The position numbers and the translations under genes were made by a program. This document shows positions 9,697 through 12,007 of a stretch of DNA of 64,000 nucleotides, in pieces. Location of the stretch: NCBI GenBank assembly GCA_023014365.1, contig JAEBUN010000052.1, positions 124,001-188,000 of the forward strand, in the 5' to 3' direction. Source of the DNA: Lepiota brunneoincarnata (taxonomy: Eukaryota > Basidiomycota > Agaricomycetes > Agaricales > Agaricaceae). The notes under the pieces are model-generated. The model saw nothing but the letters and a program-made list of their open reading frames with translations, was not told where the DNA came from and ran no database searches. Numbering within the stretch: position 1 is the first letter of the stretch; every line of letters starts with the position of its first letter.

Positions 9697-9701
9697 CCAA
9701 A

Positions 9702-10040
9702 TGTTAGGGGAAGTAAGGCACCGGAACCAAGTTGATATTCAGGTGGCGATTACAATCGCCACCCACGCTATATATGTACATAGTGGTCTGCGCACAGACC
9801 GGGTAACCAGACACTACGATAGCTACCAGTAATAACGTACGCAAACAATAGACAAGCAACTAATAATAGAAGTCGCCCGCAGATCGGGTTCGGGGATGGG
9901 GGTGGCCGAAGGCCGAGACCGGGCTCGGGCATCGGGCATCGGCTAAGAAGGCCGAGCCCAGACGTCCAACCACAGGTCCCTAGAAGTACCTTGCGTAAGG
10001 GGGGGCGCAATGCAAAGCACACGACGCCAGTCCCCTTACA
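9702..10040 (-). repeat. 3' LTR of the KH element (left copy)
   Basis: This 339-bp repeat matches 11,320-11,658 with no difference found by eye. On the minus strand this is the downstream LTR, immediately preceded by the polypurine tract. It carries the same TATATA box, hairpin (9,742-9,763) and ten-base PBS-complementary word (9,735-9,744) as the other copy. Confidence 0.9.
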
Positions 10041-10053
10041 CCAGCCCCCTCTT
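10041..10053 (-). promoter_or_regulatory. Putative polypurine tract (plus-strand primer)
   Basis: On the minus strand AAGAGGGGGCTGG ends exactly at the start of the 3' LTR. This is where an LTR element keeps the purine tract that primes second-strand synthesis. It sets the orientation of the element as minus, in agreement with the ORF. Confidence 0.6.
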
Positions 10054-10088
10054 AAGAGTCGACGACCCGGCGACTTGGTTCCTTTGTC

Positions 10089-11240
10089 CTAAAAAGCGCG
10101 AGCCCAGCGGCCATCCGCTAGCCGAATGATAGACCCATCCACCACAAGGGAACGGGCCATATCAAGACGGTCGGCAGGGGCAGTAGGCATAACCCCCCGG
10201 CCCCAGGTCGAGAGGACACTGTTGACCTCCATCGGGGTCAAGGCCGGGGTAGGGGTGGCGCTTCCCATTCGGACTGATGGGACTCCGGGAGTAGACATGC
10301 CGGAGGGGGTAGAGATGGGCATAGGGGAGCCGCGCGACGGTTGCCGAGAAACCGCGGGCGAACGGGTAGGGGTAGGAGTAGATGCGGCCGTACGCATAGT
10401 TGTCGACGGGACGCCGGCCGGGGTAGCGATGTGAGGGGGAGTGGGTGCGACTGAAGAGGCCTGCGAGGAGGACCGCGCACCCGGATGCGCCCAGTCTGGG
10501 ACTGGGGTGGCAGAGCCGGGGGCAACGGGGTCCGTACGGGCCGGAGCAGGAGCCTGGGCTGCTCCAGGAGCAGACGGTCCGGGGGCCGCCAAGGCGGGGC
10601 CGGAAACCGCTGTGGTCTTCTCCTTCTTTGTCTTGGGAAGATGGACGCGCTTGCGCGCAATCCGCTTACCTAATACCACAAGGGCATCACCGAGTTGCTG
10701 CTCGGTCCCCCTAATAGAGACATGGCGCTCGTCGGCACCATCCGTGGCCACTGAATAGACACGGAGGTGAGCGCCGCTAATGTCTGCGACCTGTTTAAGG
10801 CCGCGGCCGCCGCGACCAATCACGTGACCACTCAAGCCGTCGGCGATGACGAGAGTGGTCTGATAGCGATCGGCCTGGTCTTCCTGCGGGTAGTAGGCCG
10901 AGAGCGGGAGGGCGGTAGATGTGCCTTTTACCGAGGGGCGAGTGGGGCCCGGGCAGTTAGGAGTGCGTGGGGCGCCGGCAGAAACCTGCGAGCGACCCTT
11001 TCGGGTAGTGGCCGTTTGAATGACGGCTGGAGAAGGACCGGCGGCAGCCATCGAGGGACGTTCCTCGAGGGTGCGCAGGCGGGACGAGAGCGAACCGATC
11101 GAGCGGTTAAGCTCGCCGATCCGGGCCAATAAGGCCTGAGTGTCCTCACCTGAACGCGAGGGTCCTGCCGAGGCAGGGGCTGTGGTCGGTAGTGTGGGCG
11201 CAGTTGCTTTCTGCTTGCCTGAGGACTTTCGGCGAGGCAT
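10089..11240 (-). CDS. KH-domain, coiled-coil protein of the LTR element (gag-like by position)
   Basis: The ORF has 383 residues and starts 79 nt inside the 5' LTR. Residues about 34-62 form a short coiled coil (QALLARIGELNRS). Residues about 126-195 match a KH RNA-binding fold, with the GxxG loop as VIGRGG (G142-G145) followed by a helix and the strand HLRVYSV, and then a basic segment (KRIARKRVHLPKTKKEK). The rest, about 200-360, is Pro/Ala/Thr/Ser-rich and probably disordered. Position, oligomerisation segment and nucleic-acid-binding module are those expected of a gag, but I see no CCHC knuckle and no known gag domain. I infer that the protein packages the element RNA. A captured host KH gene is the alternative. 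I do not know a named family with this layout. Confidence 0.75.
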   Translation of the reverse strand: MPRRKSSGKQKATAPTLPTTAPASAGPSRSGEDTQALLARIGELNRSIGSLSSRLRTLEERPSMAAAGPSPAVIQTATTRKGRSQVSAGAPRTPNCPGPTRPSVKGTSTALPLSAYYPQEDQADRYQTTLVIADGLSGHVIGRGGRGLKQVADISGAHLRVYSVATDGADERHVSIRGTEQQLGDALVVLGKRIARKRVHLPKTKKEKTTAVSGPALAAPGPSAPGAAQAPAPARTDPVAPGSATPVPDWAHPGARSSSQASSVAPTPPHIATPAGVPSTTMRTAASTPTPTRSPAVSRQPSRGSPMPISTPSGMSTPGVPSVRMGSATPTPALTPMEVNSVLSTWGRGVMPTAPADRLDMARSLVVDGSIIRLADGRWARAF

Positions 11241-11307
11241 ACTGGCGATAGGGCTGGGGACAGGGTAGATGGGGTGCAGAGAGCTAGGGTGGCAAGTCCG
11301 CGTAGAG

Positions 11308-11317
11308 ACCTGAATAT
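11308..11317 (-). promoter_or_regulatory. Primer-binding site, self-priming type
   Basis: Ten bases (minus strand ATATTCAGGT) begin 2 nt after the 5' LTR. They are exactly complementary to ACCTGAATAT inside the LTR (11,353-11,362 on the plus map), which begins about 30 nt after the TATA box. In Tf1/sushi retrotransposons the transcript 5' end folds back on such a site and primes reverse transcription. No TGG, the usual start of a tRNA-primed site, is present. Confidence 0.7.
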
Positions 11318-11359
11318 TCTGTTAGGGGAAGTAAGGCACCGGAACCAAGTTGATATTCA

Positions 11360-11381
11360 GGTGGCGATTACAATCGCCACC
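11360..11381. promoter_or_regulatory. Perfect 10-bp hairpin at the predicted transcript start
   Basis: ggtggcgatt is followed by a two-base spacer and aatcgccacc, a perfect inverted repeat. It sits between TATATA and the predicted start and overlaps the first bases of the PBS-complementary word. It could be a protein-binding palindrome or an RNA stem at the 5' end. The role is unknown. Confidence 0.6.
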
Positions 11382-11386
11382 CACGC

Positions 11387-11392
11387 TATATA
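11387..11392 (-). promoter_or_regulatory. TATA box of the KH element LTR
   Basis: TATATA on the minus strand lies 30 nt upstream of the A that begins ACCTGAATAT. The same box occurs in the left LTR. Confidence 0.55.
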
Positions 11393-12007
11393 TGTACATA
11401 GTGGTCTGCGCACAGACCGGGTAACCAGACACTACGATAGCTACCAGTAATAACGTACGCAAACAATAGACAAGCAACTAATAATAGAAGTCGCCCGCAG
11501 ATCGGGTTCGGGGATGGGGGTGGCCGAAGGCCGAGACCGGGCTCGGGCATCGGGCATCGGCTAAGAAGGCCGAGCCCAGACGTCCAACCACAGGTCCCTA
11601 GAAGTACCTTGCGTAAGGGGGGGCGCAATGCAAAGCACACGACGCCAGTCCCCTTACACCAAAGAGATACCCTCTCCAATCCATGAACACTCTTATCAAG
11701 CATTCAACACTTATAATACACTCAACCAAGTCACATGTGACTCCCACCCCTCATCTACAACAAACAAAACCCTCAAATATTTATGGATAAATATCCTTTA
11801 CGTCTCCTATCCAACAATTTATGAACTAGCAGATGGCTCCTCGACCAAGTAAATCCAGTTCTAATTCTTCCTCCAGCTGCTTCTCAGGCACATGAGTTAT
11901 CTGGGCGTTGGAAGTCTGCTCTGTTATGAATAGTCCAGATTGAGAGGAACAGGAACAACTATTTGACTTTACAAGATGGGTACAAGAAACCACAGACCAG
12001 TTACGAG

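What the first reader, a model, noticed from the sequence alone, without database searches (positions are those of the whole stretch)
9702..11658. A recent LTR element whose only gene is a KH-domain protein and which carries a Tf1-type self-priming signature
Seen: matching 339-bp LTRs, a 5-bp target duplication (ccaaa) and a single intact ORF with a KH GxxG loop and a coiled coil. Ten bases starting 2 nt inside the 5' LTR are exactly complementary to ten bases in the LTR that begin about 30 nt after TATATA, where transcription should start. Known: Tf1/sushi elements prime reverse transcription with their own transcript 5' end annealed to such a site. Inference: this is a non-autonomous element trans-mobilised by a self-priming Ty3/Gypsy-type partner, with a KH protein in place of a zinc-knuckle gag. 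I know of no described family with this combination.
Basis: partly seen in the sequence, partly recalled or inferred. Interest (0 to 1): 0.9.

Follow-up and report, generated by a model that had tools for sequence, protein, structure and literature searches.

The report
Jumping gene encoding RNA-binding KH protein
In this genome, probably a mushroom-type fungus, a short jumping gene present in many copies carries only one gene, for an RNA-binding protein, and seems to start its own copying with the tip of its own RNA while borrowing the copying enzymes of a larger jumping gene.

Summary
Window 9702-11658 (minus strand) is an intact 1,957-bp LTR element: 339-bp LTRs with 0 mismatches, 5-bp target duplication, one 383-aa ORF with a type I KH domain. 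It is one of many: 33 hits in the same genome cover at least 370 of 383 residues, 27 without a stop. Of 30 loci examined, 27 have both LTRs readable, and all 27 have exact 5-bp duplications. The ORF evolves under purifying selection between subfamilies, strongest around the KH domain. The self-priming signature is real: in 29 of 29 loci with a readable primer site, the ten bases 2 nt after the 5' LTR exactly complement ten LTR bases, which lie 28-38 nt after a TATA in 28 of 29. A blind scan finds the layout once in each of four reverse-transcriptase families (three other ten-mers), against 1 hit in 102 control segments. One family, a chromodomain Ty3/gypsy element ('F1396'), also shares the KH element's LTR edges and is the likely helper. 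'KH replaces Gag' is only partly supported: no capsid domain or zinc knuckle, but a coiled-coil helix and a Gag-like short motif. Transcript start, helper dependence and RNA binding were not tested.

The parts
9702..11658 (-). KH LTR element, whole (1,957 bp)
9697..9701 (.). target-site duplication ccaaa, left copy
   Evidence: L009
11659..11663 (.). target-site duplication ccaaa, right copy
   Evidence: L009
11320..11658 (-). 5' LTR in sense orientation (TGTAAGGGGAC...CCCTAACA)
9702..10040 (-). 3' LTR in sense orientation, identical to the 5' LTR (0 of 339 mismatches)
11387..11392 (-). TATATA of the LTR promoter
11353..11362 (-). putative self-primer ACCTGAATAT, the inferred first ten bases of the RNA
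11318..11319 (-). 2-nt spacer GA between LTR and primer-binding site; GA in 57 of 59 KH-type junction matches and 34 of 36 F1396-type matches, counted from the lists
11308..11317 (-). primer-binding site ATATTCAGGT, exact reverse complement of 11353-11362
10089..11240 (-). single ORF with stop codon, 383-aa KH protein
11061..11153 (-). residues 30-60, long confident helix (probable coiled coil)
   Evidence: helix pLDDT 85-92
10680..10856 (-). residues 129-187, KH type I domain with GRGG loop; nearest solved folds hnRNP K KH3 and PCBP KH3
10224..10235 (-). residues 336-339 PMEV, motif also found in Gag proteins of the helper's family
10045..10053 (-). AAGAGGGGG, probable polypurine tract 4 nt before the 3' LTR, same in 27 of 27 delimited copies

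Best explanation
This is a recently inserted, non-autonomous LTR retrotransposon of a KH-protein family. Its RNA starts about 30 nt after TATATA; its first ten bases fold back onto the primer-binding site 2 nt after the 5' LTR, are cut off by RNase H and prime minus-strand DNA, as shown experimentally for Tf1 (inferred here from sequence). Reverse transcriptase, RNase H and integrase, and the capsid, come from a chromodomain Ty3/gypsy helper, most likely the F1396 family, whose integrase would recognise the shared ends TGTAAGGGGAC...CCCTAACA|GA (inferred). The KH protein is kept by selection (shown) and most likely binds the element's own RNA and brings it into the helper's particles or helps it fold for priming, with its helix and PM[DE][IV] tail as possible contacts to Gag (inferred, the weakest step).
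For: Copies: 33 hits of at least 370 aa, 27 stop-free (counted from the table); 27 of 27 delimited copies with exact 5-bp duplications and 0-36 LTR mismatches. Selection: dN/dS 0.36 between subfamilies A and B (112 pairs), 0.22 and 0.15 in the alignment blocks that hold the KH domain and its basic tail, 0.57-0.69 within subfamilies. Self-priming: 29 of 29 readable loci match their 5' LTR exactly, TATA 28-38 nt upstream in 28 of 29, the exception L020 having an incomplete LTR; minimum-energy folds pair bases 1-10 with the primer site in A, B and F1396; the blind scan finds exactly one such layout in each of 6 element starts, 1 in 102 control segments. Helper: F1396 shares 11 bases at the 5' LTR edge, 8 at the 3' edge, the GA spacer and 5-bp duplication; it has capsid, zinc knuckle, PR, RT, RNase H, integrase, chromodomain. 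KH fold. 45 related proteins elsewhere.
Against: No RNA, cDNA or mobility data. The LTRs of KH element and helper are alike only at their edges, the 11-base match alone having E 0.22. The A/B change in both ten-mers (TG versus CA) could be two decays of one ancestral CpG; a copy with ACCCGAATAT exists (L036), so it is not two independent compensations. In 3 of 28 loci (L036-L038) the 3' LTR ten-mer no longer matches. A pattern search for a further matched pair (ACTCAAATAT/ATATTTGAGT) found 0 places. Fold energies are only 0.6-1.8 standard deviations below shuffles. 21 of 4000 shuffled F1396 LTRs also give a 10-nt complement. Subfamily B has TGG at offset 7. No profile homology between KH protein and Gag. 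An unsampled RT family could be the helper instead.
Confidence: 0.7

Rival explanations
1. The element is a passive carrier: a host KH gene was captured into an LTR element and has no role in its mobility.
For: The domain resembles ordinary hnRNP K/PCBP KH domains; gene capture by LTR elements is known (recalled).
Against: dN/dS 0.36 between subfamilies and lower around the KH domain; the KH core with its basic tail recurs in the 28 homologs aligned out of 45 and the PM motif in 30 of 45. No obvious host parent stood out among the 105 matches, but the two weakest long matches (37-38%) were not traced: C53:21450 lies beside a primer-site junction, C59:129454 was not examined.
Confidence: 0.12
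2. The KH protein acts on the host or on the element's mRNA (stability, export, translation, escape from silencing) and not in particle packaging or priming.
For: KH proteins of the hnRNP K/PCBP type do such things in other organisms (recalled); nothing here shows contact with Gag.
Against: The Gag-like PM[DE][IV] motif in 30 of 45 homologs, 1.0 expected by shuffling (motif chosen after looking, homologs not independent), and the N-terminal helix hint at particle contact; neither is proof.
Confidence: 0.3
3. The helper is another self-priming chromovirus with similar ends, for example the older family with 45% Gag identity (L077) or an unsampled one.
For: L077 ends in CCCTTACA|GA and has a 9-of-10 matched ten-mer (216 of 200,000 shuffles reach 9 of 10); only 150 of 1371 RT candidates were scored and LTR edges of only four RT families were read.
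Against: All 21 Gag matches of 42-47% identity that cover 300 or more residues hold at least one stop (counted from the list); F1396 has recent copies with open gag and pol frames (0 and 1 LTR differences of 453 in L069 and L070).
Confidence: 0.2
4. Reverse transcription is primed by a tRNA or a tRNA fragment and the ten-base match is coincidence.
For: Most LTR elements use tRNAs (established); genomic tRNAs could not be compared here; subfamily B has a TGG at offset 7.
Against: Same layout with four different ten-mers counting KH, control 1 in 102; no TGG in the first 16 nt after the LTR in A and F1396, nor in F1286, F1203 and F1222 at their corrected LTR ends (read).
Confidence: 0.04

Closest known systems
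Tf1/sushi group of chromoviruses (Tf1, Tf2 of fission yeast; Tj1 of S. japonicus)
   Same: Primer site just after the 5' LTR complementary to the inferred RNA 5' end; 5' end and primer site pair in the predicted fold; the helper's Pol has SH3_Tf2-1 and chromodomain. Definition from passages of PMC10085805 and PMC4600332.
   Different: The KH element has no Gag or Pol. The match is 10 nt in the families here (11 in Tf1, recalled). The three-duplex 'pretzel' of Tf1 was not tested.
TR-GAG, LARD and TRIM non-autonomous LTR elements
   Same: LTRs, primer site, polypurine tract, no RT or integrase; moved in trans (recalled).
   Different: TRIM and LARD have no kept ORF, TR-GAG keeps a real Gag (recalled definitions); this family keeps a KH RNA-binding protein instead.
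Helenus and Ajax non-autonomous LTR retrotransposons (PMC10886601, listing and start of abstract seen)
   Same: A recently described group of non-autonomous LTR retrotransposons.
   Different: Derived from small-RNA genes by its title; no KH protein is mentioned in what I saw.
hnRNP K / poly(C)-binding KH domains
   Same: Type I KH fold, GxxG loop.
   Different: One KH domain in an element-encoded protein with a long N-terminal helix, basic tail and low-complexity region.

Membership tests
Non-autonomous LTR retrotransposon | Paired LTRs TG...CA, target duplication, polypurine tract, multi-copy | tested here: met
Non-autonomous LTR retrotransposon | No RT, RNase H or integrase of its own | tested here: met
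   Internal region of 1,279 bp; longest ORF 383 aa with only KH families in Pfam; the shorter overlapping ORFs were not scanned
Non-autonomous LTR retrotransposon | Mobilised in trans by a helper with matching ends | tested here: inconclusive
   Candidate helper with matching ends found; mobilisation itself not tested
Tf1/sushi-type self-priming | Primer site complementary to the 5' end of the RNA | tested here: inconclusive
   Complementarity exact and recurrent; RNA 5' end inferred from TATA only
Tf1/sushi-type self-priming | Three-duplex 'pretzel' RNA structure | not tested
   Only minimum-energy folds made; the central duplex forms
Tf1/sushi-type self-priming | RNase H cleavage that releases the primer | not testable with these tools
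   Needs biochemistry
Tf1/sushi clade (the helper F1396) | Ty3/gypsy order of domains with chromodomain | tested here: met
   PR, RT, RNase H, integrase, SH3_Tf2-1, Chromo in that order
Tf1/sushi clade (the helper F1396) | Placement in the clade by RT phylogeny | not tested
   No named reference elements at hand; best solved relative is Ty3
Gag protein / TR-GAG | Capsid domain | tested here: not met
   No Gag family hit; model shows a helix, a KH fold and a small C-terminal unit, the rest low-confidence
Gag protein / TR-GAG | CCHC zinc knuckle | tested here: not met
   One cysteine in the window protein; 0 of 45 KH homologs with CCHC versus 115 of the 120 Gags listed
KH type I domain | Beta-alpha-alpha-beta-beta-alpha fold with GxxG loop | tested here: met
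   GxxG-LKQ in 38 of 45 homologs

The most novel reading that the evidence does not exclude
A family of LTR retroelements, spread through mushroom-forming fungi, whose only gene is a KH RNA-binding adapter with a Gag-like docking tail: because each RNA carries its own primer, the element needs neither tRNA nor the helper's primer site, and the KH adapter lets it choose its own RNA for packaging into a chromovirus particle. That would be a parasite of a retrotransposon that keeps a specific RNA-selection protein instead of any Gag or Pol part.
Probability: 0.35. Interest if true: 0.8.

Novelty: new variant of a known kind. Interest (0 to 1): 0.62.

Why it matters
Non-autonomous LTR elements normally keep no gene or keep a Gag (recalled). 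A family that keeps only a KH RNA-binding protein under selection suggests that choosing or shaping the RNA is the one job the helper does not do well enough. Self-priming also removes the need to share a primer site with the helper, so only the LTR edges must match; this makes helper-parasite pairs findable by sequence, as done here. It also gives several families in one genome in which to test self-priming outside yeast.

Tried and rejected
First helper guess rejected: the primer-site junction at C26:37882 is a truncated KH relic next to an unrelated F1396 insertion.

First reading of other RT families rejected: searches compared the wrong bases because the LTR 3' ends of F1286, F1222 and F1203 lay beyond the stretch assumed; my notebook entry 2 states that they lack a self-complement, which is wrong. 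The blind scan, confirmed for F1286 by its duplication AGTAT, corrects this.

Compensatory change A versus B as independent proof: weakened, since both forms can come from one CpG.

A further matched ten-mer pair sought by pattern: 0 places.

KH protein as a diverged Gag: not supported by profile comparison, only by motif and architecture.

Literature: the searches (0 papers) listed no paper whose title or abstract start describes a KH domain in an LTR element. The lists are capped (20 of 95, 15 of 347, 10 of 46, 12 of 49) and cover openly licensed PMC papers only. In one search four listed papers hold the words 'KH domain'; the passages concern host genes or reference titles. Two (PMC12582503, PMC11703154) also hold them and were not opened; by title they are about mammalian antiviral proteins.

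Full report
What is there. The window belongs to an unnamed eukaryotic genome of 55.6 Mb in 95 contigs. Its long frames match fungal-type kinase, CHAT, TPR and NB-ARC families and two relatives of the KH protein bear the name Termitomyces, so a mushroom-type basidiomycete is likely; I did not establish the species. The reported element is exact: LTRs 9702-10040 and 11320-11658 with 0 of 339 mismatches, duplication ccaaa on both sides, one ORF on the minus strand of 383 aa. In sense orientation the element starts at 11658.

Copies. A protein search of the same genome gives 105 matches (107 of 112 candidates scored, so a lower bound). Counted from that table, 33 cover at least 370 of 383 residues and 27 of these have no internal stop. 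I worked on the 30 best loci (L009-L038). Two young subfamilies dominate: A (the window's, element 1,957 bp, LTR 339 bp) and B (83-87% identical protein, element 1,903 bp, LTR 311 bp). In 27 of 30 loci both LTRs could be delimited; all 27 have identical 5-bp duplications, with 0 to 36 LTR mismatches (L035 also has 41 gapped columns); L014, L020 and L027 were set aside as incomplete.

Selection on the ORF. 26 of the 30 loci have an ORF of at least 1,100 nt from an ATG near the expected start. Between 7 A copies and 16 B copies (112 pairs) dS is 0.306 and dN 0.110, ratio 0.36. Blocks of 50 alignment columns give 0.22 (columns 151-200) and 0.15 (columns 201-250), where the KH domain and its basic tail lie, rising to 0.60-0.77 at the C-terminus. 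Within subfamilies the ratio is 0.69 (A) and 0.57 (B), as expected for drift after insertion (L027, L033 and L037 were reported apart, with ratios of 0.37-0.47). The protein is thus kept by selection while the lineage moves. The method is a simple Nei-Gojobori count without a tree.

The protein. Pfam KH_1 at residues 129-187; nearest solved chains are hnRNP K, Nova-1, FUBP, KHSRP and PCBP KH domains. An AlphaFold2 model from 29 sequences (window protein and 28 of the 45 homologs; mean pLDDT 62.6, pTM 0.35) shows a helix at 30-60, a KH fold at about 114-199 and a small C-terminal unit at 336-381; much of the rest is below pLDDT 50. Foldseek ranks hnRNP K KH3 first (E 1.0e-3, TM 0.79 by target; it counts no match at or below 0.001). 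No capsid domain appears. Of 45 homologs, 38 have GxxG followed by LKQ and none has a zinc knuckle. A motif [PAS]M[DEQ][IV] near the C-terminus occurs in 30 of 45 KH homologs (1.0 expected by shuffling) and in 101 of the 120 Gag homologs listed (3.6 expected), at a median of 16 residues before the zinc knuckle in the 98 Gags with both. The motif was chosen after looking, and related sequences are not independent. A profile comparison (29 KH sequences against the F1396 Gag and 25 of its 120 listed homologs) finds only a 26-column stretch of the helix, probability 5.3%, E 0.0074. So the motif and the N-terminal helix are shared features, not shown homology.

The self-priming signature. After the 5' LTR come GA and then ATATTCAGGT; ACCTGAATAT begins 30 nt after the first T of TATATA. 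In 29 of 30 loci the primer site was readable (not in L027), and in 29 of 29 it is the exact complement of the 5' LTR ten-mer: ATATTCAGGT/ACCTGAATAT, ATATTTGGGT/ACCCAAATAT, and in L033 ATATTCAGAT/ATCTGAATAT. In the 3' LTR, 25 of 28 match; L036, L037 and L038, all old copies, do not. A TATA lies 28-38 nt before the 5' ten-mer in 28 of 29; L020, with an incomplete LTR, has none. A caution: L036 holds ACCCGAATAT in its 3' LTR, so the TG and CA forms may both be decay products of one CpG, and the A/B difference should not be counted as two independent compensations. Genome-wide, 59 junctions match CCCCTAACANNATATTYRGGT with up to 2 mismatches (7 for the pattern read backwards); 42 match exactly, 23 of type B and 19 of type A; 55 of the 59 lie beside a KH match, one (C25:73440) is a KH copy split by an F1286 insertion, and three (C26:37882, C28:347870, C75:67093) are not beside one (counted from the lists). 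RNA folds of the predicted 5' ends pair bases 1-10 with the primer site in A, B and F1396, though the total energies are only 1.6-1.8 standard deviations below shuffles for the 100- and 150-nt pieces, and 0.6 for the 70-nt piece.

The same layout elsewhere in the genome. I scanned six element starts (900 to 1,777 nt) for any 10-nt inverted pair whose second arm lies 2 nt after a CA and whose first arm lies 25-50 nt after a TATA. Each of the six (KH A, KH B, F1396, F1286, F1203, F1222) gives exactly one. Among 102 control segments of 1,200 nt from the rest of the window (51 stretches, both strands) there was 1. F1286 and F1203 share a ten-mer and LTR edges, A and B are related; so this is four unrelated ten-mers, KH included. 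One sequence per RT family was scanned. A further group, 45% identical in Gag (L077), has CCCTTACA|GA|AGAATCGAGT and ACTCAATTCT 33 nt after TATA: 9 of 10 matched, the difference being a CpG-type transition; 216 of 200,000 shuffles do as well. Self-priming therefore looks general among the chromoviruses sampled here, in line with its description for the Tf1/sushi group (passages of PMC10085805, and PMC4600332; passages of PMC3601003 on sushi LTRs were also seen).

The helper. Of the RT families read, only F1396 also shares the KH element's edges: TGTAAGGGGAC at the 5' end (11 bases; the others share TGT), CCCTAACA at the 3' end and the GA spacer; F1286/F1203 end CTCTAACA|GT and F1222 CATAACA|TT. 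Beyond the edges the LTRs are not alike. F1396 has 453-bp LTRs, a Gag with capsid and CCHC domains and a Pol with PR, RT, RNase H, integrase, SH3_Tf2-1 and chromodomain. Its junction GCCCTAACANNAGAATAGGATC is found exactly at 25 places and with up to three mismatches at 36 (1 for the pattern read backwards); the one with three mismatches looks like chance. No RT element was seen with the KH ten-mer at its own LTR, but only 150 of 1371 RT candidates were scored. Under self-priming none is needed.

Mechanism. Shown: anatomy, copy number, recent insertion, selection on the KH ORF, recurrent self-complementary layout, edges shared with F1396. Inferred: transcript start, primer cleavage, use of F1396 enzymes and particles. 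Guessed with some support: the KH protein selects or shapes its own RNA for packaging or priming. Self-priming would also explain why primer site and LTR ten-mer stay matched, since the new primer site can be copied from the primer itself (inference).

Novelty. The kinds of part are known (non-autonomous LTR element, Tf1-type priming, KH domain); the combination I did not find in print by the searches, which cover only openly licensed PMC papers in capped lists; four papers with the words 'KH domain' were checked by passage and concern other matters. I rate it a new variant of a known kind.

Changes after the self-check: TATA spacing is now counted over all 29 loci, the TGG statement for three RT families rests on the corrected LTR ends, the literature and homolog counts give their denominators, and the statement about a host parent was narrowed.

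Noticed in passing
L069, L071, L073, L074 (RT elements of the same genome): All four RT families examined carry the self-priming layout with the primer site 2 nt after ...TAACA; implied distances from ten-mer to LTR end range from 43 nt (KH A) to about 390 nt (F1286).
   Followed up: partly
L037 and L038: Old KH copies whose two LTRs carry different ten-mers; decay of one CpG or recombination between subfamilies could both explain it.
   Followed up: no
L033: An old KH copy whose protein has lost many arginines to Gln, Cys, His or Trp, suggestive of methylation-linked or RIP-like C-to-T change; the spectrum was not counted.
   Followed up: no
G000:C36:2745857-2749012 (L012): A KH element lies at the end of an F1396 Gag match, so it may have inserted into a copy of its presumed helper.
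   Followed up: no
window 25233-63393: Several TPR-repeat and CHAT-domain frames and an NB-ARC/TPR frame, some adjacent in different frames; a type of gene linked to immune-like roles in fungi (recalled).
   Followed up: partly
L076 (G000:C28:346000-349500): Two diverged KH-type LTRs about 1 kb apart without a match to the KH internal region between them, probably two solo LTRs.
   Followed up: partly
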